The notes under the pieces were generated by a model. That model searched no databases and had not been told where the DNA came from. It was given only the letters and a program-made list of their open reading frames with translations. From Anaspis maculata (lineage: Eukaryota; Arthropoda; Insecta; Coleoptera; Scraptiidae): a stretch of 64,000 bases of DNA. Positions 1 through 42,510 of this stretch are shown piece after piece. Each line of letters opens with the position of its first letter. Positions within the stretch are counted from its first letter, which is position 1. The stretch lies in NCBI GenBank assembly GCA_949128115.1, contig OX421967.1, forward strand, positions 23,576,635 through 23,640,634, given 5' to 3'. The position numbers and the translations under genes are program-made.

Positions 1-1470
1 TTTTTTGTAGAAGGAACGGGATAAAACTAAGTTTAACACCCTCATATCATCCGGCTAGTAATGGAGCTGCGGAGAATGCAGTAAAAAGTGTCAAAATAGC
101 TTTAAAGAAATCTTTCGATGATCCACAAAACGGTTCTAGCTCGATTTCTTGTATCTGTCAAGATATCTTCCAAATTACAGGACAACGTCTCACTGCATGA
201 CTGGTACTCCAGTTGTAAACCCCTTGAGTTGAAGTAGCAGCGTTGGTGCCGGGCGACCAAGATTACAGTTTGTCAGTGAAATTGAAACTTTTGCTACTTT
301 GTCACTTTGACATAAAGCTAAGAATTTCAAAAATCAGTACTTTTTGCGTCAACAGAGCTGTACGCGTTTTCAATGGCGGTGACCGTACACAAAAATAGAC
401 TCCAAGAAAGAGGTTGTGAGGTAACGTGATGTGTGAAGTGAATATATAAAAGTTAATACCGTCTGACCTGGGTGACCAGTTCAAGCCGCTCATGGCTTCG
501 GGGCAAGGAGAATCGCTCCTCGGGTATATACCCCTTGATGGTCTTGGCCACGATTAGCTCATAGTCTGGAGTGAGTGTGGGTTCGGGTTATGGGATTTCG
601 TGCATTCAGCATAGGGTCAAGGATAGGAAAAGCAAAAAGGAAACAGGTCAACAGTTATATTCATGACGTAAGGTTACATAACAAAAGGAATACAAAACAA
701 ACTGTAACCGTTTCTGGTGTTACGAAGAAAGCAAAATAAAATAGAAAAGATACTTAGTAGGTCCCAGAGTGAAGCTCATAACCATCCTCGACCTTTCTCT
801 GTCCATCGGTGAAACCATCGTTCTTACTGGAAAACTGCCACGGCTACAGGACTCGCCTCGTGGTGTTAGGTCTCCGTCAGCACTTGAGAAGGTAAATCGG
901 GCGCCACCAGTGTAGCAGCGGAGTAGACGGAGCCCTACGAGGGTCCTAACGGCACACTGGAGCCAGCCGGGCAATCCTCCAGTAAGACAGCTTCACCTAG
1001 AACATCGAAAGGAATCAGAGACACATACACTACTTTGGTATCTTTCCCCAAAATTTATATCCCTACCCCAATTTTGATGATATTGCCGAAAAAGGTAATA
1101 ATAGGTGGGTAATAGTCAAATGATATAGACGATAGACGTCGACAGATAATTTAGAGTTGGTGGCGGCTCAACCTTCCGTGAGCAAAGGCCAGGTCAACAG
1201 ACATGTACGCTGGCATGCCATTATAACAAAGCACCACTTAACTGGACTGTGCTGTGGCGGATAGACGCCGACTGAGAGATGGATCGCCTGGTGATGTCTA
1301 CGATGGTACCACGACGGGGCGTATTCTGTAGACGCCGGCGCTGTCGTATGGTGGCCCACGGTTGACTGACGAAGCGAAAGCAGACAGTTGGAAGTCGCTA
1401 TGGTCATCTGGCAGCATCAATATGTCAGGAACTCTGATTTTCAGGAACAGCACAATACCAGTGACAGGCC

Positions 1471-1707
1471 ATGTCAACGGGCAACAGGAGAATTTGGATG
1501 ATCATAACTGGCAAAACAGGAAACAGGACTGGGAAGACTGGAGCGGATGACGATGAGGATGATGTTCAGTCAACGCCGGAGGAACAGCAGCAATCTCGAC
1601 GGCGGAGACGAGGTGGTGGATTGGAATCTAGCTCGACACCGGAATGGATGAAAGCTTCATCGGTGGAGGGACAATGGAGATGTGGGCGGCCGGGGCGGCC
1701 TAACTAA
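1471..1707 (+). CDS. Weak candidate coding segment, acidic then Arg-rich
   Basis: This is a 78-codon open frame in a GC-rich patch. The translation runs through a short Asp/Glu cluster (DDDEDD), a Gln run, an Arg run (RRRRR) and a segment containing TPEW. I do not recognise the family. There is no convincing splice site or poly(A) signal tied to it, and an overlapping frame on the same strand (1362-1550) also stays open. It could be a piece of an exon or chance low complexity in GC-rich DNA. Confidence 0.12.
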   Translation: MSTGNRRIWMIITGKTGNRTGKTGADDDEDDVQSTPEEQQQSRRRRRGGGLESSSTPEWMKASSVEGQWRCGRPGRPN

Positions 1708-3935
1708 CGTCTTCTTCTACTCGATCATCTTCTTCTTTCGAACCAAACTCGAAAACCAATCTCACGAGCAGCGCTCTTCTCAAAACCCAAAAACTGTCTC
1801 CCCTCTTGTTATCCCTACCAACCACACCTTCACTTTTTTTTTCTTCCGCCTACTCCTCACATTTCACACCGTTTCAAAGTGACAGATTTAAATATTGAAA
1901 GGTCTTCTTAGATTTGTTTGTCATTGTCAGCATAGGCAGTTGAATACAGGCAGCTGCGACGCGACGTAAGCAATCGCACGGCACGCCGCCCAAATGATTT
2001 ATTACGATATTACTGGATCACAGTTGGCACGCTGCGCTCGCTTTTCAGCGTTTTACGGAAATGACATCCCCTGTGGATTTTTTCAAGTCGGGACAAAACA
2101 AAGTGGACATTAATGTAATTGAATTTAAAGTTTACGTCTCTTTCTGCACTACAAAAGGAGATAAAATCGCGCAGTTCTCAATTGTTCCACTTGCCCTACG
2201 CCAGAACTCACGGGCTGACCTTTTCTCCTCTCCACCGGATGATCCGCTCCTACTCCTGCATTGAGACCCGTTGTGATATTCTTGCCACTTCTGTTTCGGC
2301 CATCAAGGAGGTTTTCGGCTCTTTGTCATGATTGCTTCGGGCTTGTTCTGTCTTCTTCACTGTGTTCCCTACTTGTATTATGTTCTATGCATTCACACAT
2401 TCTATAAATAGGCAATGCCCTGTTGAATTTCCATCAAAAAATCGACTCCCTCTTTGTTATCCACATATTTTATGGCCATGGCTGATGTGGACAAATTAAT
2501 GCGCACTAGCTGATTAGTTAGGTAATCAAGAAGGGATCAACCGCAAGGTAAACAGAACCAAAGCCGAAAAACACGTAATAATGTGCGTGATCATGAAGTC
2601 GATCAAAATCTAGTCTCTGGACAACAAAGCGCGATTAGCTACAACGTAATCGTTTTCTTTTCAATATCGAAACAGTTCATGTTTTTTTTTTTGGGAGAGA
2701 GGGATTGGAATGATGAAAAAAACGCTCGCTCAAGCCCGACAGGAAACTCGATAAGAAACTTCCAAGCGTCCCCCGAAGTATACCAACCAACCTTTTTAGT
2801 GACATTTTCGCAGCCCCCTGGGACAGTCGCTTCTTTGATCTTATATTGGACCGATCCGAATATTGCCAATCTCTCCCCTAAATAACTCAAAGGCCAACTT
2901 TTTGGGGGAAATACACAGTAGGTATAGAGGACCGTATCGTCACCCAGTGAGGGGACTATTGCAAATAACGCGCTCTCGAGAGCTAGTTGATGGCATATCG
3001 ATCTGTGACGTCACCGGCACGTCGCGACGCTTTTCCAGCAACAGGCAATATCAACAGGCGGCAGTGTCGTGCAGCGCGTCTCGACGTCAACACCTTCCAC
3101 GTCAGGCCACACTCCGGAACCGCGTGTGCCAAAAAAAAGTGCCAATTTTTTTTGTCGTCGAACAACTCACTTTTTAAAGTTTCTTCCATTTTTGTCGATA
3201 ATTGTACCTATGGTTGTCTACCGGGCTGCTCGAATTTTTTGTCAGTTCTATAACCACGTGTCCGGTCACGTGTTTGTCAAGTAAACAGTACAACAAAAAG
3301 AAACCGGAAGTGTCGGTAAACACGATGGTCGATTGCGGACAAGGCAGCGAATCACCTTCCAGCAGATTTGTTTGTCCCAACGATCGACAATTGGCGCTGC
3401 GGGCCAAGTGAGTAAGCAAACAAACAATTACAAAGCTGTAAACACCTGGTTATCAGTGACAGATGTGGGTATTACAACAAGTTAATTGCCTATCAACTCA
3501 ACGCTGTCACTAGAAGAGCCAAGTTTCCGGCCGATATGATTCCCCTTTTATTGGAGGCAATCCGAGAAGAAGGCAATAACATACACAAAGCCACAGACAA
3601 AGCCTATTATTAACCCTTGTTTGTCTGGTTCATGCTTAGGTTTAGGTATCGCTCGGAAATGTATTGTTTTCCGAACGCACATATGTGCGGGAGAGAATGG
3701 AGATATTGGAGAAAAGGCTAATTAAATTTCACAGGGAGAGGCCAATTAAAATTCAAAAAAGCTCTCGTCATGGGAGGCGCGCGCTGGAATTCTAAGAGAT
3801 TTTCCTGGAAGCAACTGAGGAGTCAAGAGTAACCGAAAATAACTTTGGAATTGCTCAATTAACGTGGACGTGACGTGGGCGCACGTGTTTCAGAGAGACA
3901 AGAGAGGAAAGCTCGTTGTTAATTGAGCTTTTATG

Positions 3936-8522: not shown

Positions 8523-10477
8523 GAGCATTAAGGCCCCAGGTGTCGATTTTGTACTCGTGAACACTTAACTGACGTGAAAATAATGGCGGACGACCGACAA
8601 AGTTGATGTTGTGTAACGCAACTACCTATACCTACTTAGAAGTATTTGAAACAGGTGTGAGGATGATGAAATAGGTAGTTGATGTAAATCCAGCTTGTTT
8701 CATGAATAGCATTTCTGTAGAGCTGCCCTTCCTCACGTGGCAATTTTGATCAGTCGTCAAGACTTCAAATATGATCTACTTGATGGTGTACAATAGTTGA
8801 CATTTTTTAACATTAAATTAAAAACTCTTGTCTGTATAGTTGTATAGTCTTTCCACATGAACCGTAATTCGAGTGACCTGCGAGATTTTTCTCAAGTTTC
8901 CAAAGCTGAACAATGGAAAATCCCCAAATATATATTTACGGTTGGTTGCACTGACGAGTGGTGACATTCGGCTCGATAATTCACGACGAATGAAACGCAT
9001 GTTTGGTAAATTTCCGCTTTATACAAAGTTTCTACGATATCGTGATGTCTGGCGCTTCTTTTTATTTTAATGGAAAAATTACGTCATTTTTCGACCTGTT
9101 TTAATTTTGGCAGTGAACAAAGGAATCAATGTAAATCCTGCGACATTTGACAATTGAGAAAAATACTCTTAACCTCTTGAAGCGAGTTCGATTCTTCGAC
9201 GCTTCAGTGTAAAAATGCGATGCATCGACCATTTTACATGCTTCAGTCAAAAAGACGCATCAAGTCCTGAAAGATATGACAAAATAACAAACCCCCGGCG
9301 TGGTGGTCGCAATGGGCAGCAGGATTTACATCTCAAAACTCTATCAATCTAAGTTTCAAAGAGCCCAGTAGTTCAATGTTGGGTATTGAACAGGAATTAG
9401 TGTAACAGCCTTCAATTTGCCATTGCAACAACTTGCGTTTTGGGCCCCGCGCGAAACAAGTTTGTGTCAGCACTATGACTCTGGCCATCAGGACGGTTGA
9501 GAGGCCCGTGCGGTTTTGGTGCCTAAATGACGGTAACACGTTCCTGCGGCCCTCGACTCGCATTTCCAAGCATGACCCGGTGAATTTTCCAACGTTCAAC
9601 ACGTTTCAACGTTCAAATGCTGGGAAACGATCCGTTAGCCTTGAGCACGCAACTTGAATTCTTTACCAAACGAACGACTCGTGTTTTAGAAAAAAAACGA
9701 AAAATCGTCTATCTGTGACATTTGTCGTTCGGTTTTTTGTTTCGTTAATAGTACCTCCCTCTAGGTAGGTTCAATTACTTTAAACTGCGTAGGTCTTGAA
9801 CAACCTACCTTCATCCAACTTGAATATATTGCGTTGCAATAACATCCAAATATAATAATTCCTACGCTGTAATTGCCGTTGAAGTTTTTAATTGCACATT
9901 TAACTAAAACTCGAGTTTCAACTTCACTGAACTGAAATGAAACAGTTGCGCTGATGTGGATCATTATTCTTATTAGCTTAATGAATATCACGTCTCAAAT
10001 TGTATTTTTTCAAGCTTTGAACTTTTCTGGGGCTTTTCTCACATAAATACAATAAAATTTGAAGTGTAAAAGATTCAGTTGTCTTTTTCTAGATATAGAC
10101 AATAATTCATAACTTCAATAAACTTGGCTTGACACAAACAGAAAATTTGTGGTGTAGACTTGGACAAAAATATCGGGAATTGACTTTATAGTACCATGTC
10201 CTCCAGGTCGGAATATGAGTAAAACGATTAAAAGCACAAGAGATTCCAATAAAAGCACTGATGTGTCTTGAACAGAAATAATCATTTGTGAACGCCATCT
10301 TCATAGATTTTGCTTCTCCAAGCTCCAGGTCCCTATCAATGCTCAAGAATAAGTTTCATAATACTTAAGCTGGATCAAGTATAAAAAGACTTGAGCTGAG
10401 ATGTTTCGAAAGTTGAGTTTTTCAGGCACTCATAGAGTTTAGTAAAGATACAGTTTCGATCAAAGCTTTTTGGCACC
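8523..10477. other. Intergenic stretch left of the Polinton-like element
   Basis: No gene is recognised. Around 9040-9060 there is a short segment (GATGTCTGGCGCTTC) that recurs in inverted form near 61370, so part of this stretch is dispersed repeat. Short open frames near 9430-9660 are not recognisable and lack splice or poly(A) context. Confidence 0.5.
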
Positions 10478-10525
10478 GTTTATAGTAGAGAGAGAAGAGG
10501 GCGACTGAATCAAGTTTCATTACAT

Positions 10526-10690
10526 GTAATTACAGAGGAGGTAATTACGACGTCGGTAATTAGACCGGTCCTACCGCTCTACAGTACACTCTTTAGGGTA
10601 CGACGCCGGGTGCTATAGAGACGTGATATGGGTCAGGATCCTGAAACCGAGCTCATTAATTATTGAGGTAATTACTAGAGAGGTAATAAC
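10526..10690. promoter_or_regulatory. Phased GTAATTAC boxes in left TIR
   Basis: Palindromic GTAATTAC boxes start at 10526, 10541 and 10556 (last base varies), then at 10668 and 10683 (one-base variant GTAATAAC). Spacing is exactly 15 bp within each group. The set is mirrored in the right TIR (for example 21035-21042). Phased short palindromes close to a terminus look like protein-binding iterons, for example for a replication or recombination protein. TAATTA is also a homeodomain core. The role is inferred. Confidence 0.55.
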
Positions 10691-11110
10691 ACCCTGAGAG
10701 TATGTGCACACCAGTTTTACCGTTGCGAGCTTGAACCCGCGGTTTACCTGGACCGTCGCTTTAGTCCTCCTCCTCCTCTTCATGCCTACCGCTGCAGGTG
10801 CAAAGCAGAACAGTGGCAGGTGCATGTGCCATCGTGTCTTCTCAGTCGAACCTCCTCCGACACCGTTTGCGCTATATTGGTAAGAGCGAGATGAAGCGCT
10901 GCCATCCTCTTAACACAGCTCGACCAAGCGCACAGCGGTGGGTCTTCTCCTCTCGCGCTCGGTTCTACCTGCTCTGCACGGCACAAAACCGCCGGATCGT
11001 GTTTTATGGCTGCTTCCAATCGAACATGCGAAGGAGTCGCAAAGGTAGGTCCTTCGCAAGGTCCTGATGGTCGGAGGTCCTTGCACATATTGGGGGCATG
11101 AGCGCTGCAT

Positions 11111-11112
<2 letters not shown>

Positions 11113-11167
<55 letters not shown>
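11113..11167. repeat. (GA)n tract in left TIR
   Basis: This is an uninterrupted 55-nt GA dinucleotide run, matched by (CT)n at 20401-20455 in the right TIR. GAGAG is the known binding motif of Drosophila Pipsqueak, and the element encodes a Psq-domain protein. Any link between the two is an inference. Confidence 0.85.
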
Positions 11168-11169
<2 letters not shown>

Positions 11170-11247
11170 ATTTCGCTCCCCATCTCTGTCTATCATCCTA
11201 TGCGCTGGCGGTCCAGCCAAACGCAGGTGTTTATGCATCGGTGAAAT

Positions 11248-11755
11248 CGGTGTACGGTTTCATTTATCGACGCTCACAACATGGGAACGAAGGGATGCAC
11301 GGCGCTTTAAAAAAATCAATGAGAGGAGGTACCTAATTTTTCCATATGACCGCTACGTCGCAATGTTTTAATCATAGCAAGGAGGGAGAATATGAAATAG
11401 ATATGGAAGCAGAGGTGAGGCGCACAGCGTTTTAAAAAAATTAGATGAGGTACCTAATTTTTCTGAGATGAGGTACCTAATTTTTCTATTTGCTCGCGCT
11501 TCGGTGTACGGTTTCATTTATCGACGCTCACAACATGGGAACGAAGGGATGCACGGCGCTTTAAAAAAATCAATGAGAGGAGGTACCTAATTTTTCCATA
11601 TGACCGCTACGTCGCAATGTTTTAATCATAGCAAGGAGGGAGAATATGAAATAGATATGGAAGCAGAGGTGAGGCGCACAGCGTTTTAAAAAAATTAGAT
11701 GAGGTACCTAATTTTTCTGAGATGAGATATCTAATTTTTCTATATGCTCGCTACG
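11248..11755. repeat. Direct duplication of about 254 bp inside left TIR
   Basis: Two consecutive units beginning CGGTGTACGGTTTC start at about 11248 and 11502. Each contains several GAGGTACCTAATTTTTC segments. The same duplication is present in the right TIR, so it arose before the arms were last homogenised. Confidence 0.8.
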
Positions 11756-12285
11756 TCGGAATGTATTAACCAAAACAAGTCGACATGCTCTGGACAGATG
11801 AAGCGATACATAGCTAACTGTTGTACTAATCATCATGATGTTTTTGATGGTAGGGGGTAATAGATACCTCGGTACATCATCTAGCTGTGTTTTAACGGCC
11901 ATTTTTACCTTCGTCACAATTCAAAAATTCAAATATTCAAATCCGGTATTGGTATGATATCCCCTGCCAGAGGGTGGAGGGTAGGGAGCGGCGGGTGGTA
12001 AACCGGGATTGTTCGATGAGGTGAACGAAACTGCTGGTTATATAGATATTGCTCGTTTATGGTTTTGTAAATTGCCGAATTAAGGGCTTTTTCTCGCGAG
12101 AAGACCTAAGCGCCGCATATGACAAAGCGCGCTATATCGGCTCCATCCCTGTCTATCATCCCACAGCGACATGGATATATTTGAGGCCTGTTAGATGCAT
12201 AAGGTGAGGTTTCCGACCGAGGGTCTGCAGGTATAAAGTGCTATTATCATACAAAACCGATAGGTACCTGTTCTTTAAAAAATTC

Positions 12286-12468
12286 ATGCTCTCAAAGCTC
12301 GGGGTATATTATAGAATTATATGCCATCATAGTTTCGAGGAAAATGGTGATATGATGGTGGTGTATGGAGATAATTCTACGAGCACTTTGGAAAAACCAT
12401 TTAGCAACACAACGAGACGGCTTCTATACCACTTTCTAAAGCATGGGGAAGCAGTGCCACTTGAATGA
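12286..12468 (+). CDS. 60-aa frame in left TIR, unknown
   Basis: This ATG-started frame of 60 codons begins MLSKLGVYYRI and runs toward the interior of the element. The right TIR carries the equivalent frame (19282-19100, minus) with the same start and stop and only a few residue changes (for example I to M, F to Y, final E to G). I do not recognise it. Conservation between arms may simply reflect TIR homogenisation, so its being a gene is unproven. A T-rich run follows it. Confidence 0.25.
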   Translation: MLSKLGVYYRIICHHSFEENGDMMVVYGDNSTSTLEKPFSNTTRRLLYHFLKHGEAVPLE

Positions 12469-12647
12469 AAACTACGAGTGCACTCGCTTTTTTTTTTATA
12501 AACCCAGCTGTGAATGAGCATAATGAGCACCGTTTACCTGGGATCGCATGGTTTAGCTGTAAAGATGTTGTGGGGTATGAGACAGTTCGGCATGCGTTAA
12601 TTAGCAGTAGCCGTTGAAAAAAAACCAGGCAATCATTTTTTCAAGAG

Positions 12648-12653
12648 TTTTAT
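12648..12653 (-). terminator. Poly(A) signal of the 219-aa gene
   Basis: TTTATT on the plus strand gives AATAAA on the minus strand, sharing bases with the stop codon context (TGAATAAA). Confidence 0.6.
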
Positions 12654-13313
12654 TCAAAAATTAATACATGTCTTCAGTCGTTCATAATCCGATAATACAT
12701 CGTCGTAGTGTAGTTCGAGGAACTCTAGCATGCATGAAACTTTTTCATTAGATTTGAAACCAGCCAAAATCTGTTTGAGAACTTTATACATAGAAACGTT
12801 CGAGTTCGATACATCGCTCGTTATTTTAAAGGAGCTTGATAATAAATCAGTATAAAATTTTTTAAAATTCATTGATTCTAGAGCCTCTAATCTATAGCTA
12901 ATGATATCTCTCATTCGTGCAATTTGTTGTAGAAAATTTTCATGCAGATAGACGGTCTGGGCCCTGCTATGTAGATGTCCGATGCCTGCAGATGAACCCA
13001 ATTTTAGAGTATAGTTCTCGAAAATTTTCATATCACCATTCGGAACGTTCGAAGTTGATGCAGTCGAAGAGGGCAAGAGCTCTATTAATTCACTCCATTC
13101 CCGCATGGTGAAAGATATTCGGCTCGAATTTGCATGCGATATGATGATGATTGCTGGTGAGAGTCCTCTGGCGATGCTAAGCCCAACTCGTATCCTTGCA
13201 GCTGATCCGTTCAGAGTTGTTTGATATAGTAATTCGGTCTCTTGAACGATGGCTTCGTCATAATACCGTAACATTTTTTCGATAGACTGCCAGGGGCTGA
13301 ACAAGGTGGGCAT
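12654..13313 (-). CDS. 219-aa cargo protein of the Polinton-like element, unknown
   Basis: This is an intact single-exon frame starting at a true ATG (13313) just inside the left TIR. The TGA stop (12656-12654) overlaps the poly(A) signal, read as TGAATAAA on the minus strand, a compact arrangement typical of viruses and Polintons. There is no signal peptide or membrane segment. A strand-rich stretch around residues 35-80 includes RVGLSIARGLSP and ISFTMREWSELI, which faintly recalls PC4-like single-stranded DNA-binding folds; that is a guess from pattern only. The C-terminal half looks helical and ends near LSDYERLKTCINF. It faces away from the Psq gene. I do not recognise the family with confidence, but an undamaged 219-codon frame inside a decayed element suggests selection or recency. 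Confidence 0.7.
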   Translation of the reverse strand: MPTLFSPWQSIEKMLRYYDEAIVQETELLYQTTLNGSAARIRVGLSIARGLSPAIIIISHANSSRISFTMREWSELIELLPSSTASTSNVPNGDMKIFENYTLKLGSSAGIGHLHSRAQTVYLHENFLQQIARMRDIISYRLEALESMNFKKFYTDLLSSSFKITSDVSNSNVSMYKVLKQILAGFKSNEKVSCMLEFLELHYDDVLSDYERLKTCINF

Positions 13314-13320
13314 CTCTCTT

Positions 13321-13720
13321 TTTGTTTGACGTTGGTGCTGGCGATGCTATGAAGATGTTTACGATGCTTATAATGCTAGCTGCTTATCTCGATATGCCGG
13401 TGATGATCCTTACGTTGATATGACGATAGAGGTGATGATGCTTGCGATGATATGACGATAGCGAGGGTGATGAATATGATAATATGACGTTGTTTTATGA
13501 TGAAATAACGTTAGCGGTGATGATGCTTGTGATGATATGGCGATAGCGGTGATGATCCTTACGTTGATATGACGATAGAGATGATGATGCTTGCGATGAT
13601 ATGACGATAACAGTGATGTTGCTTTATGATGATATGGAGTTGCTGGTGATGTTATCACGTTGTTGGTGATGATGCCTACGTTGCTTATGGCGATAGCGCC
13701 GATGGAGTTTATGACGGCTG
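13321..13720. repeat. Imperfect GATGATATGACGATAG-type minisatellite
   Basis: About 400 bp of degenerate tandem repeats built on GATGATGCT, TATGACGATAG and related words lie between the 219-aa gene and the integrase remnant. Frames through it read as His/Ser/Ile-rich repeats and are not believable proteins. Confidence 0.75.
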
Positions 13721-13797
13721 TGATCGGGACGTTTTTGCTCCAGACACCTTATTTCACCGGCTCTCTGACGTTAAGTGTGATCGACGAGGTTGCTGGT

Positions 13798-14088
13798 TCA
13801 AACAACGTCTGCTCTCGCAATCCACCCTCGATCGGGCATGCCCAAATATTTAACGTAAAGCCTCGAACCGGTTTTTTTCAAAACTTTTTCCACCAGATAG
13901 ATCTCGGGATGTTTAGTTTTCTGTAGTTCTCGTTCGTAAAAACATCCCATGATCGGCGAACCCTTTAGATCTTCAATAAGATATGTAGGTGGATTGCTGT
14001 TCGGTTTCACTCGTCTGATGCGAAACAGCTCCGTCGTCCAGTTGGGGGTATAACCTTTTTCAAAAAGTACTTTGTATTTACCCAGACG
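13798..14088 (-). pseudogene. Polinton-type integrase, C-terminal remnant with chromodomain-like end
   Basis: The minus-strand translation contains KYKVLFEKGYTPNWTTE, then TYLIEDLKGSPIMGCFYEREL and YLVEKVLKKTGSRLYVKYLG before the stop. This order (SH3-like FEKGYTPNWTTE, the G-x-FY-x-x-EL element, then a chromodomain-like EKVL...YVK segment) is that of the C-terminus of Polinton/Maverick integrases. The catalytic DDE core is missing: just upstream (about 14104) sequence homology stops at the flank of the 59-bp repeat array and a stop codon follows. It is therefore a truncated remnant that marks the element as Polinton-derived. A second, shorter and inverted copy of the end is at 17885-18002. 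Confidence 0.8.
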
Positions 14089-14103
14089 CGCTAGCAGCCC
14101 ATG

Positions 14104-15108
14104 CCGACTCGGCGCTTAAATGATTCTATTAATCTATCCATCTATAATATGCCTCATTAGATCAGCCGGCTGAACCATGCCTAATTCCACATGGTCGTCG
14201 GTTAAAACATCACGAGCTGATTATGGCATGACGAGCTGCCAGTTAAATCATGACGTCACTGTTGACAGCTCATGCCGACTTATGGCATGACGCGCTGGTG
14301 GTTAAAGCATGACGTCACTGTTGACAGCTCATGCCGACTTATGGCATGACGCGGTGGTGGTTAAAGCATGACGTCACTGTTGACAGCTCATGCCGACTTA
14401 TGGCATGACGCGGTGGTGGTTAAAGCATGACGTCACTGTTGACAGCTCATGCCGACTTATGGCATGACGCGGTGGTGGTTAAAGCATGACGTCACTGTTG
14501 GCAGCTCATGCCGACTTATGGCATGACGCGGTGGTGGTTAAAGCATGACGTCACTGTTGACAGCTCATGCCGACTTATGGCATGACGCGGTGGTGGTTAA
14601 AGCATGACGTCACTGTTGACAGCTCATGCCGACTTATGGCATGACGCGGTGGTGGTTAAAGCATGACGTCACTGTTGACAGCTCATGCCGACTTATGGCA
14701 TGACGCGGTGGTGGTTAAAGCATGACGTCACTGTTGACAGCTCATGCCGACTTATGGCATGACGCGGTGGTGGTTAAAGCATGACGTCACTGTTGACAGC
14801 TCATGCCGACTTATGGCATGACGCGGTGGTGGTTAAAGCATGACGTCACTGTTGACAGCTCATGCCGACTTATGGCATGACGCGCTGGTGGTTAAAGCAT
14901 GACGTCACTGTTGACAGCTCATGCCGACCCGATGCTTAAATGATTCTATTAATCTATCCATCTATAATATACCTCAATAGATCATCCAGCTGAACCTTGC
15001 CTAATTCCGCATGGTCGTCGGTTAAAACATCACGAGCTGATTATGGCATGACGAGCTGTTGGGTAAGGCATGACGTCATTGCTAGCAGTCCATGCCGACC
15101 CGACGCTT
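14104..15108. repeat. 59-bp tandem array with CRE palindromes, flanked by direct repeats
   Basis: Twelve units repeat at exactly 59 bp: GACGTCAC starts at 14252 and recurs every 59 bp to 14901. Each unit contains GCATGACGTCACTG, with a perfect TGACGTCA (CRE/ATF site), and CATGCCGAC. Units are nearly identical; the first and last differ in the GACGCGGTGG portion. A flank of about 125 bp containing TTAAATGATTCTATTAATC lies at about 14113-14221 and again at 14940-15055, followed by a degenerate unit (TGACGTCATTGC, about 15070). The array lies upstream of the Psq gene and could be an enhancer, replication or binding array. Confidence 0.9.
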
Positions 15109-15291
15109 AAAACGTGATGATCTAGGTGATATGGCATGACGACTGATGGTTAATGCACAGCGCTTTGACTCTCAGACCATGCCGTCTCTACGGATAAAAC
15201 ATGTCGACTAGTGCTGCTGGCACATGTCAAATTATCTAGCAGAGCATGCCGACTTGTTATGGTTGAAACATTGCACCATAGCGGTTATAGC

Positions 15292-15327
15292 TATAAAACC
15301 TCGAACACCTCCGATTAATAGCCAGTC
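15292..15327 (+). promoter_or_regulatory. TATA box and initiator of the Psq gene
   Basis: TATAAAA at 15292-15298 is followed by CCAGTC at 15322-15327, whose A (15324) lies 32 bp downstream, the usual TATA-to-initiator distance in arthropods (initiator consensus TCAGTY). The coding start is about 50 bp further on. The CRE array lies just upstream. Confidence 0.55.
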
Positions 15328-15349
15328 GCGAGCGATCTTTGTTCAGTGA

Positions 15350-15379
15350 ATGAAGCTGCTGATCCTGAAAGAAACATGA
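15350..15379 (+). CDS. 9-codon upstream ORF overlapping the Psq start (ATGA)
   Basis: An ATG at 15350 opens a nine-codon frame whose TGA stop overlaps the main start codon as ATGA (15376-15379). It is the only ATG between the predicted initiator and the main ATG. Such an overlap would favour termination-reinitiation or leaky scanning. The arrangement is seen directly; the regulatory effect is inferred. Confidence 0.4.
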   Translation: MKLLILKET

Positions 15380-16743
15380 GAAATCAAATTAGTTCTGAAA
15401 CAATTCAAAAGGCTGTAGCCGAAGTCCGACGTGGTGGCTCGCGCAGAGCGATCGCTAGGTCATTATGTATTCCCGCATCTACACTGGGGCGGCTGTTGCG
15501 ACGGGTTAAGAAAGTGAACGGCGTGTATGTCTATAATCCAAATATCGGGAATAGGAGAATCTTCTCAAAAGATGAGGAGTTGATGCTCGCTGATTATATC
15601 AAAGCAGCATCGAAAATGCCACATGGCGTGACACGCAAGCACGTGTGTAAATTCGCTCTAGAACAGGCTAGGCTGCTAAACAAGAGCTATCCACAACGCT
15701 GGGATAAACAACAAGCAGCATCTTTTGATTGGTGCAGAGGATTCATGAAACGGCATCCAGACATTTCACTTAGAGGCTGCAGGGAACGCAATTTGCAGCA
15801 AGTGGTAGATCCTGACAAAGCGGCTGAGACCGTCTCTTGTAAAAATCTCGAGACTTTTGACGTCAGCTCGAATAATTCGACTATGGTTATGAAGTATCCA
15901 ACCAAAGCTTCCTCGAATACGTCGCTACAGCTCCTAGCATCATCAGGGCCTCAACCGGGACCTTCGCCAGTGCTGTCATCATCAGCCAGCATGATATCGG
16001 AACCATCAGATGTGTATGATGACGAGGATGCAGATGGTTATGAAAGAGCAAATGAGGACTCCACTACCAAGTTCTCCGGTAATAAAGAAGATTTTCACAG
16101 CTCTCAGGTTGGGACGTCCAAAGCCTATAATTATGTTAGCGTGTTCAGACCACGTTTTTCATCGGGAGATCAAGTCAAATCACGTCTCGCTTCTAAATAT
16201 GCGAACACTGCTAAATCCTCGGAGGACTCTGTCTTGAAAGCTGATAGTGACGATGTGTTATACGATAGCTCTGGTGATTTCAACGCTGCCAAAGAACTTT
16301 CTTCGAGTTCGCTTATCAATCCGCGTACGGGGTATAAAAATGCATATGAGCGCCGTTTTTCATCTGAGGACGAGGATCAAAACATGTGGTGTAAGAGCTT
16401 CAGTAATACAAAAGAAGTTTCTTCAAGGGCGCGACTTACACCGAGTGGCGGATATCAGAATGCGTACAAGCACTGTTTTTCATCTAAGGATGAAGATAAG
16501 AGGTGTTCGGGGAGCGACTTCGAGAACATTGATGATCGTGCGGGGAATGGCTCCTTTATGAATGATATGGGACGACGGCGATTTGCGAAGAGGTCCCTAG
16601 TAGGTGAATATTTCACTGACATAAATGGCGTTATAGATCGATTAGTAACATTGAGTGCACAGCGGAACACCGGGGACGTCGGAGTCGTCCGAGAAATAGT
16701 ATCGCTGGAAAAAATTCTCCGAGATGCTGAAGTAATATACTAA
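15376..16743 (+). CDS. Psq plus CENP-B-type HTH protein without DDE domain, 455 aa
   Basis: The frame is open from 15322, but the first in-frame ATG is at 15376, giving 455 residues. Residues about 5-44 form a Pipsqueak-type helix-turn-helix (IQKAVAEVRRGGSRRAIARSLCIPASTLGRLL region). Residues about 62-140 match the CENP-B/Tc5-type DNA-binding domain of pogo/Tigger transposases (FSKDEELMLADYI, then FMKRHPDISLR). Where a pogo-type transposase would have its DDE domain there is instead a Ser- and acid-rich tail with three diverged repeats, each with a tyrosine motif followed by FSS (near residues 251, 320 and 360). It is probably a nuclear DNA-binding protein derived from a captured transposase N-terminus. 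Two DNA-binding modules and no catalytic core suggest a regulator or replication/segregation factor. The frame is intact, with TATA/Inr before it and AATAAA after it. Confidence 0.85.
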   Translation: MRNQISSETIQKAVAEVRRGGSRRAIARSLCIPASTLGRLLRRVKKVNGVYVYNPNIGNRRIFSKDEELMLADYIKAASKMPHGVTRKHVCKFALEQARLLNKSYPQRWDKQQAASFDWCRGFMKRHPDISLRGCRERNLQQVVDPDKAAETVSCKNLETFDVSSNNSTMVMKYPTKASSNTSLQLLASSGPQPGPSPVLSSSASMISEPSDVYDDEDADGYERANEDSTTKFSGNKEDFHSSQVGTSKAYNYVSVFRPRFSSGDQVKSRLASKYANTAKSSEDSVLKADSDDVLYDSSGDFNAAKELSSSSLINPRTGYKNAYERRFSSEDEDQNMWCKSFSNTKEVSSRARLTPSGGYQNAYKHCFSSKDEDKRCSGSDFENIDDRAGNGSFMNDMGRRRFAKRSLVGEYFTDINGVIDRLVTLSAQRNTGDVGVVREIVSLEKILRDAEVIY

Positions 16744-16894
16744 CATTTTTTTTTTTGGATACCCTCAATAGCGTAAAAATGTCCATATTTTATTCACGAT
16801 CGAATGGGACATTGATCGGAAATTTGTATCAACTAATACCTAATACCTACCTACCTACCTAGCCATTTAAAGATGTAGTGAATATTTCCGTGGA

Positions 16895-16900
16895 AATAAA
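16895..16900 (+). terminator. Poly(A) signal of the Psq gene
   Basis: AATAAA lies 152 bp after the stop codon, in the same orientation. Confidence 0.6.
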
Positions 16901-17052
16901 GATATTGAACACTTTTGAATAGAGCATATTTCTTTCACTGTCATAATCACCAATCCTATATGCCTGGTTGTGATGCCCATACTTGTCTCAATAGCGAATC
17001 ATAAGGTGAGGGTTTGCGGAATGCCTGCCTCATGGACACATTCATATTTATC

Positions 17053-17083
<31 letters not shown>

Positions 17084-17884
17084 AAGAATTCAGAGATGTC
17101 AAATAAATAGAGTGAGCTCGCGCGAAAGAATAGTCTCGACTGTAGAAACCCTCCAAAGCTCTTGTACTTTTTATCCCACCCGAATCAGTCCGAGCAGAGT
17201 CCAATTCCGGCTCTGTTAGAAGTCTATAATCTCTCATTCAATATATAAAAATGGTGCATTCCTTGATGCTAGAACATGGTATGCAAGGTGAGACATCCTT
17301 TTTGGCTCCCTTTTACTTCTCCTGAGCCACATCAATTCGGATGATAGCCTTACCCACTTCGAAGGAACGTCTACCGTATTTGGCGAGACAAATCAAAAAT
17401 TTATATTTTTGCAATCACTGCGGGTACTAGCTACTGTAGCATCATGCATTTTTGCAGATTTTGGCCATGCAATGAGTTGCTAGAGACAAATTTCCCTGGC
17501 AACTCCCTGCACAAAAGAGGCGAAGCAGCACCTAATTCGAGCTGTATATCAAGTCAGGGAGATATTATAAATACAAATTTTTTATATGGTTTGCGGAAAT
17601 CTCTGAGCTTTCGAGTAAACTAGATAATATTATCCTATCCAATTTTATTCAGAAAATCAGATAAAACATATAAAACATGTTTCACCCTCTAGCTTATCGT
17701 CAAAACCGATGAATTATTCTCGGAAATGCTTGCAAATACCTTCAAACATGTGAATGAAAATTTCTATGCTCTTGCTAGTACGATAAAATCCATCGTGTTT
17801 AACACTTGGGGGATATGGAAGATGCCGGTTCTCCGGTCATTTGGTTGGATTTTTTCCAACATTCCCATCTCAGATGGGGGGTTT
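16901..17884. other. Element interior without recognisable gene
   Basis: This stretch holds a long A run with AAAAG repeats (about 17055-17085) and no credible frame. A 70-codon plus-strand frame from 17726 only becomes recognisable in its last 16 codons, where it joins the inverted integrase remnant. Confidence 0.5.
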
Positions 17885-18002
17885 TTTCGAGTCGAACTTT
17901 GCGGTCGAGGATGGATTACGAGAGCAGATGTTGTTTGAACCGTCAACCTCGTCGATCACGCTTATCATCAGAGAGCCTGCGAAGTAAGCTATCTGGAGCG
18001 TA
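17885..18002 (+). pseudogene. Second, inverted copy of the integrase 3' end
   Basis: The plus strand ends RGWITRADVV then TGA, matching RGWIARADVV-stop of the left remnant. Homology continues past the stop: AACCTCGTCGATCAC is shared at about 17945 (plus) and 13780 (minus), and the similarity runs on through CTGGAGC near 17998 and 13738. Upstream of about 17890 it is not integrase-like. The element therefore carries two inverted copies of the integrase end, as if formed by palindromic duplication of one Polinton terminus. Confidence 0.65.
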
Positions 18003-19023
18003 GTGTTCCGACCATCGTATTATTTAAAATTATCGTAGCGAGAATAATCCAGCTTATTATACATGATTTTCTCTTAAATCAATGCTTTCATACGTATATC
18101 ATATTCTTTTCTTTCCGTATGTGGTTATTTTGAAGCGAACTTGGGTATTTAGGCAAATACTTATCACTCTATACTCTACTATTTTCACGCAAGCATCCTG
18201 GGTTGAAAAAAATTATTCAGTGCTGATATTTTCCAACTCATGGCACTATGGCATGCAAAAGAAAGAAGTAGCTTTCAATTAAGTTTCTACATAAATATTT
18301 ACTATATAATTAACTCCATTAATAGGTCTGAAAGAGCGTGCGCCCGAAGCTTCTCCTATAATACCTGCATATGGCCAGGACTATGTAGGTACCTGCATCA
18401 AAACAGGTGGCATGGCTGGGATTTCTTCGCGAGCTCCGAGATTCTTCTACGGTCCTCATTATGATGTCATCGCTCGAAATTGCGCTGTTTTGTTCGACCC
18501 GGGGTAAATTGGTTTTTATTCGCTAGGCATTTACAATACATCAGCGCTTACTATATACGTATCGCAATTTTACACCAGCAGCCATGTTGCATGCTCAATT
18601 AGTCATGGTTCAGCCGACTGATCTATTGAGACATATTATAGATGGATGGATAGATAGATAGAATCATTTATTTGTTCAAGATGAAAACAGACAGGCAGGT
18701 TATCACGTGGGTACCTACACCCAGATCATTAGCGAACTTATGACATCCAGTATGTACACGCATGCGGTGGGATAGGTAGCCCTTCTCACTACATAGCACT
18801 ATATATGGGGAGTTATGTTTGAAGGTGGATTCGGGTTTTATTTTAACAAAAATCTCGCACCGGTACGACCCTTTTTTTTTTTTAAACCCGTAACACCATG
18901 ATAAACAAGACGGGAGATTTTAAATAAGGTTTTTATCTATCAAATAAATATTTCTCGGTTCACTCAGTTCTTTGCCATAGGAAAAAAATAGCTGATGCGA
19001 CTAGCCATTCTTTCAGAAAGGAG
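18003..19023. other. Right interior of the Polinton-like element
   Basis: No gene is seen. Around 18585-18670 a segment (ATAGATGGATGG, GAATCATTTA) is an inverted match to the flank of the 59-bp array at 14113-14195, further evidence of palindromic rearrangement inside the element. Short GATA/GATGG microsatellite words are present. Confidence 0.55.
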
Positions 19024-20398
19024 GCGATTCCAGGTAAACGGTGTTCATTATGCTCATTCACAGCTGGGTTTATAAAAAAAGCGAGTGCACTCGTAGTTTT
19101 CACCCAAGTGGCACTGCTTCCCCATGCTTTAGAAAGTGGTATAGAAGCCGTCTCGTTGTGTTGCTATATGGTTTTTCCAAAGTGCTCGTAGAATTATCTC
19201 CATACACCACCATCATATCACCATTTTCCTCGAAACTATGATGGCACATAATTCTATAATATACCCCGAGCTTTGAGAGCATGAATTTTTTAAAGAGCAG
19301 CTACCTACCGGTTTTGTATGATAATAGCACTTTATACCTGCAGACCCTCGCTCGGAAACCTAACCTTATGCATCTAACAGGCCTCAAATATATCCATCTC
19401 GATGTGGGATGATAGACAGGGATGGAGCCGATATAGCGCGCTTTGTCATATGCGGCGCTTAGGTCTTCTCGCGAGAAAAAGCCCTTAATTCGGCAATTTA
19501 CAAAACCATAAACGAGCAATATCTATATAACCAGCAGTTTCGTTCACCTCATCGAACAATCCCGGTTTACCACCCGCCGCTCCCTACCCTCCACCCTCTG
19601 GCAGGGGATATCATACCAATACCGGATTTGAATATTTGAATTTTTGAATTGTGACGAAGGTAAAAATGGCCGTTAAAACACAGCTAGATGATGTACCGAG
19701 GTATCTATTACCCCCTACCATCAAAAACATCATGATGATTAGTACAACAGTTAGCTATGTATCGCTTCATCTGTCAAGAGCATGTCGACTTGTTTTGGTT
19801 AATACATTCCGACGTAGCGAGCATATAGAAAAATTAGATATCTCATCTCAGAAAAATTAGGTACCTCATCTAATTTTTTTAAAACGCTGTGCGCCTCACC
19901 TCTGCTTCCATATCTATTTCATATTCTCCCTCCTTGCTATGATTAAAACATTGCGACGTAGCGGTCATATGGAAAAATTAGGTACCTCCTCTCATTGATT
20001 TTTTTAAAGCGCCGTGCATCCCTTCGTTCCCATGTTGTGAGCGTCGATAAATGAAACCGTACACCGAAGCGCGAGCAAATAGAAAAATTAGGTACCTCAT
20101 CTCAGAAAAATTAGGTACCTCATCTAATTTTTTTAAAACGCTGTGCGCCTCACCTCTGCTTCCATATCTATTTCATATTCTCCCTCCTTGCTATGATTAA
20201 AACATTGCGACGTAGCGGTCATATGGAAAAATTAGGTACCTCCTCTCATTGATTTTTTTAAAGCGCCGTGCATCCCTTCGTTCCCATGTTGTGAGCGTCG
20301 ATAAATGAAACCGTACACCGATTTCACCGATGCATAAACACCTGCGTTTGGCTGGACCGCCAGCGCATAGGATGATAGACAGAGATGGGGAGCGAAAT

Positions 20399-20457
<59 letters not shown>

Positions 20458-21084
20458 ATGCAGCGCTCATGCCCCCAATATGTGCAAGGACCTCCGACCA
20501 TCAGGACCTTGCGAAGGACCTACCTTTGCGACTCCTTCGCATGTTCGATTGGAAGCAGCCATAAAACACGATCCGGCGGTTTTGTGCCGTGCAGAGCAGG
20601 TAGAACCGAGCGCGAGAGGAGAAGACCCACCGCTGTGCGCTTGGTCGAGCTGTGTTAAGAGGATGGCAGCGCTTCATCTCGCTCTTACCAATATAGCGCA
20701 AACGGTGTCGGAGGAGGTTCGACTGAGAAGACACGATGGCACATGCACCTGCCACTGTTCTGCTTTGCACCTGCAGCGGTAGGCATGAAGAGGAGGAGGA
20801 GGACTAAAGCGACGGTCCAGGTAAACCGCGGGTTCAAGCTCGCAACGGTAAAACTGGTGTGCACATACTCTCAGGGTGTTATTACCTCTCTAGTAATTAC
20901 CTCAATAATTAATGAGCTCGGTTTCAGGATCCTGACCCATATCACGTCTCTATAGCACCCGGCGTCGTACCCTAAAGAGTGTACTGTAGAGCGGTAGGAC
21001 CGGTCTAATTACCGACGTCGTAATTACCTCCTCTGTAATTACATGTAATGAAACTTGATTCAGTCGCCCTCTTCTCTCTCTACT
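19024..21084 (-). repeat. Right TIR of the Polinton-like element
   Basis: This is the mirror of 10484-12547. The CT tract at 20401-20455 is exactly the complement of the left GA tract and has the same 55-nt length. The inner limit is where the shared sequence (CCAGGTAAACGG side) diverges at about 19024. Equal microsatellite length on both arms argues for recent insertion or gene conversion between arms. Confidence 0.9.
19100..19282 (-). CDS. 60-aa frame in right TIR, counterpart of 12286-12468
   Basis: This is the mirror copy of the left-arm frame, also 60 codons, starting at an ATG whose complement ends at 19282. It differs from the left copy at a few residues without any stop or frameshift. 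The function is unknown. If translated, both copies would be read toward the interior of the element. Confidence 0.25.
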   Translation of the reverse strand: MLSKLGVYYRIMCHHSFEENGDMMVVYGDNSTSTLEKPYSNTTRRLLYHFLKHGEAVPLG

Positions 21085-21090
21085 GTTTAT

Positions 21091-41287: not shown

Positions 41288-41438
41288 GTAAGTGTTCTCC
41301 CTTCAACTTGTGCTTTTCTGCTTTCATTCTTTTGGTTTTGTTAATTTATCGATTTTGTTTTTTTGGAACTCAAAACGTTCCTACTGAGACTCATCAGTTT
41401 CCACACAATTCTTAATTCTTGGGATTTGGTTCTTGCAG

Positions 41439-42308
41439 CAGACAAACTAGCAGCAGCGAATCTCAATTGTCCAAAGATCTCGGTTCGGTTTCACTGAACG
41501 AACCAAGAGAAGAAGAATCGGCGGAAGACTCTGAAGCGTCCAGGAGAGAATCAACCACCAGCCGATCGCTGTCGGAATGGAACTGGACCGAAGGCAGAAG
41601 CGACGAAAAGGTCTCGCCGAGCACTTCGAGCGTGACGAGCAGCTTGTTCAAGGTGAGGCCGTTCTTCATGTCCATCCTGGATCTGTTACAAATTCCCTTG
41701 CAGAGCTCGCAAGACTCGAAGCCTTCCCACGACTCGTCGCTCGGCACCATCGAACTCTCCCTCACCTACGACCCGGTCACCACCACACTGCACTGCACCG
41801 TCTACCGGGCCAAGAACCTGATCCCGATGGACATTAACGGTCTCTCGGACCCGTTCTGCAAGCTCAACATCCTGCCCAACGCCAAGATGTCGACGCGCCT
41901 CCGCACCAAGACCGTCCACAAGACGCGCAATCCGGAGTTCAACGAAAACCTGACGTTCTACGACATCACCGACACGGACCTGCTGAAGAGGTCGCTGCAC
42001 GTCCTGGTGGTGGACGACGACAAGTACGGGCACGATTACATGGGCGAGACGAAGGTCAACTTGGCCAAGCTGAAGCAGCAGAACACGATTTACGTGTCGG
42101 CTCCGCTGGAGAAGCTGAGGAACGAACCGAAAGGTCCGCTGCCCGCGCCAGAGATGAACCAGTGGTTCGACGATTTGTGGTCGCGCGGCCAGATTTTGCT
42201 GTCGCTTTGCTACAGCACGAAGCGCAGAGCGTTGCTGGTGATGGTGTGCAGGTGCGCCAATCTCTTGCCGATGGACAACAACGGGTTTTCGGATCCTTTC
42301 GTCAAACT
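41439..42308 (+). CDS. Rph: Rph coding exon 5: linker, C2A and start of C2B
   Basis: The acceptor is a tandem gcagcag. The first 100 residues are a Ser/Glu-rich linker. C2A spans about 294-418 (GTIELSLTYD; PMDINGLSDPF and VVDDDKYGHD carry the aspartates that bind calcium in C2 domains; NPEFNENLTF). C2B begins at about 441 (RGQILLSLCY) and the exon ends inside NGFSDPFVKL at ct|gtaagt. All five canonical acidic positions appear to be present in C2A. No frameshift is seen. Confidence 0.96.
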
Positions 42309-42510
42309 GTAAGTCTTTCATCTTATAAAACTTTTTATGTATTTTGTGTCTATATTTTTTCCCTCGCGTTTCCCATTCTCTAATTAAACGCTCCAGATTC
42401 AGTTTGATCTGTTAGCATTTCAAGTTGATAACAATGTGATTTATTTTTTTCCAAAACAAATTTCAAGTACCTACACGTACACGTTTAGTAGAAATTAGAA
42501 AAGCTTCATA

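What the first reader, a model, noticed from the sequence alone, without database searches (positions are those of the whole stretch)
10484..21084. A 10.6 kb non-autonomous Polinton with 2 kb near-identical TIRs and non-Polinton cargo
Seen: perfect GTTTAT duplication, AG...CT ends, mirror-paired coordinates summing to 31568 from tip to at least 12468, and an integrase C-terminal remnant. Known: 6-bp duplications, AG ends and long TIRs define Polintons/Mavericks. Inference: the core replication and capsid genes were lost and replaced by two intact novel genes and repeat arrays, yet the arms are so similar that mobilisation or conversion was recent. A Polinton that moves in trans while carrying its own DNA-binding protein would be a new class.
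Basis: partly seen in the sequence, partly recalled or inferred. Interest (0 to 1): 0.9.

Follow-up and report, generated by a model that had tools for sequence, protein, structure and literature searches.

The report
Polinton split into three segments
In this animal genome (likely a beetle's) the genes of a virus-like mobile element are divided among three kinds of separately inserted DNA piece that carry the same ends, so the pieces likely depend on one another to be copied, packaged and inserted, much as in a segmented virus; the flagged stretch is the commonest of the three.

Summary
Observation confirmed: 10484-21084 is a 10,601-bp element with AG...CT ends, a GTTTAT duplication and 2-kb inverted repeats. 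It is more than a lone non-autonomous Polinton with foreign cargo. The same ends bound three kinds of element: A has DNA polymerase B; B has integrase, double-jelly-roll capsid, protease and packaging ATPase; C, the window's kind, has a helix-turn-helix protein and an integrase remnant. Gene probes find 22 A, 48 B and 115 C loci. Of 48 end-paired elements 5 are A, 11 B, 32 C, none mixed. In other Polinton families of this genome 11 of 12 polymerase loci have a capsid gene within 7.4 kb; here 0 of 22 within 20 kb; nine loci of a sister group stay unresolved. Forty of 40 copies with both ends read have perfect 6-bp duplications; a paralogous empty site confirms one B insertion. One A, one B and one C copy are identical over their outer 600 nt. 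Best reading: a Polinton with a split genome moving in trans, C being a third or satellite segment. Trans-action and packaging are inferred, untested.

The parts
10478..10483 (.). Left copy of the 6-bp target duplication GTTTAT
21085..21090 (.). Right copy of the 6-bp target duplication GTTTAT
10484..12494 (+). Left terminal inverted repeat (tip AGTAGAGAGAGAAGAGGGCG); outer about 1.0-1.6 kb shared with A and B elements
19074..21084 (-). Right terminal inverted repeat
10484..14088 (+). Stretch matching the left end of B elements at about 97% (inverted repeat, p230 and integrase C-terminus)
   Evidence: W 1-1014 and 1018-3605 against L017
12657..13346 (-). p230: open frame of 230 codons, also carried by B elements
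13801..14115 (-). Integrase C-terminal remnant (residues 216-315 of B's 315-aa integrase, 96%)
13398..13698 (.). Imperfect 32-bp tandem repeats
14221..14928 (.). Array of 12 copies of a 59-bp repeat
15376..16743 (+). 455-aa psq-like protein (stop-to-stop frame 15322-16743, 473 codons): sub-threshold helix-turn-helix matches at the N-terminus, C-terminus homologous to p399 of B
   Evidence: frame open in 16 of 16 C copies read
17902..17999 (+). Inverted trace of the integrase end, mirror of 13737-13834: remnant of a second B-type arm

Best explanation
The window element is the commonest of three kinds of element (A, B and C) that share one set of ends and divide a Polinton's core genes between them, with DNA polymerase B found on A and intact integrase, capsid, protease and packaging ATPase found on B, and it is predicted to be copied, packaged and inserted in trans by the A and B proteins. 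Shown: the gene partition, the shared ends, 6-bp duplications on all three kinds, one precise recent insertion of B, and a one-piece layout in related families of the same genome. Inferred: A's polymerase replicates all three linear molecules from the shared inverted repeats, by protein priming as in other Polintons; B's capsid and ATPase package them, probably one 10-12 kb molecule per particle; B's integrase inserts them; replication through the repeats keeps the two ends of a molecule, and the ends of different segments, alike. C looks like a B left end duplicated in inverted orientation around a new middle, as defective or satellite genomes of protein-primed viruses are (recalled), but it keeps one gene open in every copy read, whose putative DNA-binding protein likely favours C's own spread. 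Whether A and B need C is not known.
For: Partition: 22 PolB, 48 capsid, 115 psq loci by 33-nt probes; 48 of 48 end-paired elements among the 100 listed tips carry exactly one of the three markers; nearest PolB to this family's capsid 746,922 bp. Control: 11 of 12 PolB loci of the 60%, 48% and 47% groups have a capsid gene 5.0-7.4 kb away, against 0 of 22 here within 20 kb; at one 48% locus integrase, p188, the p301 C-terminus and protease flank PolB within 3 kb. Mobility: 40 of 40 copies with both ends read (5 A, 12 B, 23 C) have perfect 6-bp duplications, though A and C lack an intact integrase in all 3 and 16 copies read; empty site for one B. One system: 600-nt ends differ between kinds (0.0147-0.0158) no more than within kinds (0.0166-0.0185); three single-linkage clusters mix kinds; one A, B and C copy identical. 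Intact genes: 14 of 21 listed PolB loci have the whole 1082-codon frame open; B genes open in the 4 copies read where not cut by a stretch end. C built from B's left end. psq frame open in 16 of 16.
Against: No data on particles, replication or expression. Nine PolB loci at 53-58% identity have no listed capsid within 20 kb, but the capsid list was truncated (126 of 272 candidates scored, this family's own capsid not among them), so the control is 11 of 21 if they are counted. Constraint is weakly measured: ZnF397 pN/pS 0.99 (3 copies) and p154 0.73 (3 copies) show none; psq 0.38 rests on 16 changes. 13 of 16 C copies also keep one full-length p230, so openness alone does not single out the psq gene. 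Kind and end genotype are weakly associated (permutation 0.0475). Integrase was not counted genome-wide.
Confidence: 0.68

Rival explanations
1. A, B and C are internal-deletion derivatives of a one-piece Polinton of the same family that supplied everything in trans and is absent from this assembly (lost, or present in other individuals).
For: Related families in the same genome are one-piece; C is visibly a rearranged derivative of B.
Against: None of 48 paired elements and none of the probed loci joins PolB with capsid; A and B are complementary, A showing no trace of B's genes and B none of PolB in the copies read, uniform in size over 5 A and 11 B paired copies; most listed PolB frames are open.
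Confidence: 0.17
2. The family is moved by enzymes of the other, one-piece Polinton families in this genome, so A, B and C are all non-autonomous passengers.
For: Such families are present, several with open PolB and capsid frames.
Against: Does not explain why PolB, capsid and the other B genes stay open in A and B. The ends of the other families were not read, so this is not excluded, least of all for C.
Confidence: 0.08
3. One reading: C is simply a non-autonomous Polinton with captured cargo, A and B being unrelated coincidences.
For: C lacks enzymes and is the most abundant kind.
Against: A, B and C have the same ends, down to an identical 600-nt repeat in one copy of each; p230 and the psq C-terminus are Polinton-derived.
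Confidence: 0.03
4. Host-domesticated viral set, comparable in principle to polydnaviruses: the host keeps the copies for its own use.
For: Split gene set, and an abundant segment with a gene of its own.
Against: Dispersed near-identical copies, perfect duplications, several end lineages and decayed PolB copies look like ongoing selfish transposition. Not directly tested.
Confidence: 0.04

Closest known systems
Polintons/Mavericks (adintoviruses, Eupolintoviridae)
   Same: 6-bp duplications, AG...CT ends (definition recalled), long inverted repeats, PolB, rve integrase, DJR capsid, adenovirus-like protease, A32-type ATPase
   Different: Here the genes lie on separate integrated elements of 9.8-12.2 kb with the same ends. 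One-piece adintoviruses with PolB, integrase, capsid, protease and FtsK on one contig of about 14.5 kb are described in PMC8363768 (passages).
Bidnaviruses
   Same: PolB from Polintons, inverted terminal repeats, genome divided into segments with related ends; in the silkworm virus two linear segments in separate capsids (PMC4061559, passages); a relative may have up to twelve segments (PMC8363768, passages)
   Different: Single-stranded DNA viruses with a parvovirus-type capsid and helicase and no integrase in the passages seen; here DJR capsid, integrase and genomic insertions with 6-bp duplications
Defective-interfering and satellite genomes of protein-primed DNA viruses (recalled)
   Same: C has the ends, an inverted duplication of one helper end, and no enzymes
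   Different: C keeps a gene of its own open in 16 of 16 copies read, and its likely helper is itself split in two

Membership tests
Polinton/Maverick | 6-bp target duplications | tested here: met
   40 of 40 copies with both ends read
Polinton/Maverick | AG...CT ends and long terminal inverted repeats (definition recalled) | tested here: met
Polinton/Maverick | PolB, rve integrase, ATPase, protease and DJR capsid encoded by the family as a whole | tested here: met
   protease by resemblance to the locus and by eye, PDB match only 0.05
Polinton/Maverick | Core genes together on one element of about 15-20 kb (size recalled) | tested here: not met
   48 of 48 paired elements carry one marker only; 9.8-12.2 kb apart from one with a nested insert
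Polinton/Maverick | Protein-primed replication | not testable with these tools
   inferred from PolB and inverted repeats
Bidnaviridae | Segmented genome with PolB | tested here: met
   partition, (segments as integrated DNA only)
Bidnaviridae | Parvovirus-type jelly-roll capsid instead of a DJR capsid | tested here: not met
   capsid matches DJR-like_dom at 2.8e-64
Segmented/multipartite virus | Segments packaged in particles and co-transmitted | not testable with these tools
   no virion or read data
Non-autonomous Polinton | Shares ends with a full-length Polinton that moves it | tested here: not met
   no one-piece element with these ends among 48 pairs; probes show no PolB-capsid neighbours in the family. 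28 of 128+128 tips aside from the 100 listed were not paired individually: the listing stopped at 100 of 256

The most novel reading that the evidence does not exclude
A genuinely tripartite double-stranded DNA virus-transposon: polymerase, virion-plus-integrase and DNA-binding-factor segments are separately replicated, packaged and integrated in trans, their ends homogenised by shared replication and their 10-12 kb size set by the capsid.
Probability: 0.5. Interest if true: 0.93.

Novelty: new variant of a known kind. Interest (0 to 1): 0.85.

Why it matters
Polintons are held to be self-contained, and segmentation is rare among double-stranded DNA viruses (both recalled). A Polinton whose replication genes and virion/integration genes sit on separate integrated molecules would be an intermediate between one-piece Polintons and segmented PolB viruses such as bidnaviruses, and the origin of segmentation could be studied beside one-piece relatives in the same genome. 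Six full-text searches for segmented, multipartite or non-autonomous Polintons or adintoviruses listed no paper whose title, start of abstract or passages seen described such a case (passages; open-licence papers only).

Tried and rejected
Foreign-cargo reading: rejected because p230 is also on B and the C-terminus of the psq-like protein is homologous to p399 of B. Assembly artefact: rejected by the duplications and the empty site. Relic or single copy: rejected. The 13,968-bp copy as a full-length helper: it is C with a nested insert of about 3.06 kb. Viral-contig scans with PolB and capsid confirmed no relative. Structure of p230 uninformative (mean pLDDT 34.5); the psq-like protein modelled only at its N-terminus, with helices up to pLDDT 84. 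PDB searches gave nothing firm; PHROGs matched integrase and PolB only. A whole-protein search with the psq-like protein scored 7998 candidates and none passed. The Pfam scan of p399 found no family at E 0.1, though its relatives carry a precomputed DUF8207 domain. Species not established; beetle is inferred from the PolB matches. Fisher's test (0 of 22 against 11 of 12) left out the nine 53-58% PolB loci; with them the control is 11 of 21.
Full report
OBSERVATION. The element spans 10484-21084 (10,601 bp), begins AGTAGAG, ends CTCTACT, and has GTTTAT on both sides. The arms are 2011 nt with 12 mismatches, all beyond arm position 1308. The 31-nt tip occurs 128 times forward and 128 times reverse in the 758-Mb genome with up to 3 mismatches, and 0 times as the reversed control. 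Only the first 100 of the 256 places were listed; they form 48 inward-facing pairs and 4 unpaired tips.

THREE KINDS OF ELEMENT. The interiors of 23 copies (the window's and 22 fetched; for three of these only one 10-kb stretch) show three gene contents. A (3 copies): PolB (1082 codons), an overlapping zinc-finger frame (397 codons) that in a 60%-identical relative is part of the same protein, and p154. B (4 copies): p230, integrase (rve, 1.5e-14), p123, p399, p188, capsid (DJR-like, 2.8e-64), p241, protease, a protein with a PLA2-like domain (2.7e-11) and an ATPase with a poxvirus-A32-type match (7.2e-5). C (16 copies, the window among them): p230 whole or partial on one or both sides; in 15 of 16 an integrase C-terminal remnant; and the 473-codon psq-like frame. 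The C copy without the remnant (L015) joins C to about 3.3 kb of A.

CENSUS. Probes of 33 nt (up to 3 mismatches, all reversed controls 0) find 22 PolB loci, 48 capsid loci and 115 psq loci (100 listed). The 48 paired elements divide into 5 with PolB, 11 with capsid and 32 with psq, none with two. Sizes: A 11,386-12,042; B 11,925-12,198; C 9,817-11,906, plus one of 13,968 with a nested insert of about 3.06 kb. Nearest distances: PolB to this family's capsid 746,922 bp; PolB to a listed psq 34,351 bp; capsid to a listed psq 71,976 bp.

CONTROL FAMILIES. A six-frame search with PolB (43 of 350 candidates scored) gave 21 loci of this family at 90-100% identity, 14 of them with the whole 1082-codon frame open, and other groups at 47-60%. 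A capsid-profile search gave 126 matches (126 of 272 candidates scored; 0 of 14 control genomes; this family's own capsid, 217.8 bits, is not among them). Of 12 PolB loci of the 60%, 48% and 47% groups, 11 have a capsid gene 5.0-7.4 kb away, start to start; the twelfth is on contig C26, where no capsid was listed. For this family 0 of 22 lie within 20 kb of any of 174 capsid positions (126 listed plus 48 probed), the nearest being 34,822 bp. At one 48% locus 3 kb on either side of PolB were read: integrase (45% identity) upstream, and p188 (23%), the C-terminus of the PLA2-domain protein (56% over 80 residues) and protease (50%) downstream. So these genes are linked there and unlinked here. 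Nine PolB loci at 53-58% have no listed capsid within 20 kb (nearest 24,549 bp, a capsid of the present family); because the capsid list is truncated this says nothing either way, and a sister split lineage is possible.

MOBILITY. All 40 copies with both ends read have perfect 6-bp duplications (5 A, 12 B, 23 C; 39 different sequences; three more copies had one end only). For the B copy on contig C47 the joined flanks match 14 other places end to end at 99-100%, three of them without a mismatch by score, each with one copy of the 6-bp target, while C47 itself is split with a 6-bp overlap: a precise, recent insertion into a copy of a repeat. In 12 of 14 copies the outer 600 nt of the two ends are identical.

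ONE SYSTEM. Over 600 nt the end repeats differ between kinds (A-B 0.0147, A-C 0.0155, B-C 0.0158) no more than within kinds (A 0.0185, B 0.0181, C 0.0166). Of 43 copies, single-linkage clusters at no more than 2 differences hold 28 (2 A, 10 B, 16 C), 8 (1 A, 1 B, 6 C), 3 (2 A, 1 B), 2 C, and two singletons; members of a cluster may differ by more than 2. One B, one A and one C copy are identical. A weak association of kind with genotype remains (permutation 0.0475). More diverged end lineages exist.

ORIGIN OF C. The left 3.6 kb of the window element matches B's left end at about 97%, and several C copies carry the same stretch inverted on the right, including p230; the window kept only traces there (17902-17999). 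C is thus B's end duplicated around a new middle. Its gene is not foreign cargo in full: the last 70 residues align with p399 at score 95 (best of 1000 shuffles 42), whereas the N-terminal 170 residues do not. p399's relatives carry a precomputed DUF8207 domain. The N-terminus has sub-threshold helix-turn-helix matches (Tc5 type 0.0026, CENP-B type 0.042) and modelled helices, so 'psq-like' is tentative. The frame is open in 16 of 16 copies with 7 synonymous and 9 non-synonymous changes (pN/pS 0.38). Beside it the integrase remnant is split or stopped in 4 of 15 copies, and 16 partial p230 copies were found, yet 13 of 16 C copies also keep one full-length p230. The numbers are small and the copies recent. 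Elsewhere pN/pS is 0.17 for PolB (2 copies) and 0 for capsid (4 copies, 2 changes), but 0.99 for the zinc-finger frame and 0.73 for p154.

MECHANISM. Shown: the partition, the shared ends, duplications around elements that lack an intact integrase, one precise insertion, open genes. Inferred: protein-primed replication by A's polymerase, packaging by B's proteins, insertion by B's integrase, homogenisation of ends during replication, a size limit from packaging, and a role of the psq-like protein in C's own spread. Whether C is a required third segment or a satellite is open; its abundance, lack of enzymes and origin from a duplicated B end lean to satellite.

LITERATURE. I saw search listings and passages of PMC11071296, PMC8363768, PMC12567637 and PMC4061559. 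The passages describe one-piece adintoviruses and segmented bidnaviruses; none that I saw describes a segmented Polinton. Most subscription papers are not held.

Noticed in passing
G000 genome-wide: At least 126 capsid (DJR-like) loci of other Polinton families, many with the same score, hence probably near-identical copies: the genome is very rich in Polintons.
   Followed up: partly
C5:55758112, C9:35647269, C3:38245986, C5:32165694, C4:93765393, C1:90810555, C2:120173333, C45:67036, C2:15895317: Nine PolB loci at 53-58% identity without a listed capsid within 20 kb, possibly a sister split lineage; two have long open frames.
   Followed up: partly
L098 1764-2039: Beside PolB of a one-piece Polinton, an open frame that by eye resembles a BIR (inhibitor of apoptosis) domain; recalled, not searched.
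   Followed up: no
L015 (C4:65217903-65228208): C element whose one side is about 3.3 kb of A sequence with p154: a recombinant between kinds.
   Followed up: partly
L049/L050 (C1, about 8.70-8.71 Mb), L056 (C3, 85.26 Mb), L054 (C1, 33.67 Mb): A and B loci with diverged end repeats (about 80-96% to the window's), showing several end lineages.
   Followed up: partly
L021 5450-9767: PolB and an N-terminal zinc-finger frame overlap in different frames in A, whereas a 60%-identical relative has both in one protein; intron or frameshift not examined.
   Followed up: no
window 11247-11751 and 19817-20321: Two 251-nt direct repeats inside each arm, with 23-bp tandem units; alignments suggest their number differs between copies.
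   Followed up: no
window 41416-42312 (+): Open frame that by eye looks like a C2-domain (synaptotagmin or rabphilin type) host gene; recalled, not searched.
   Followed up: no
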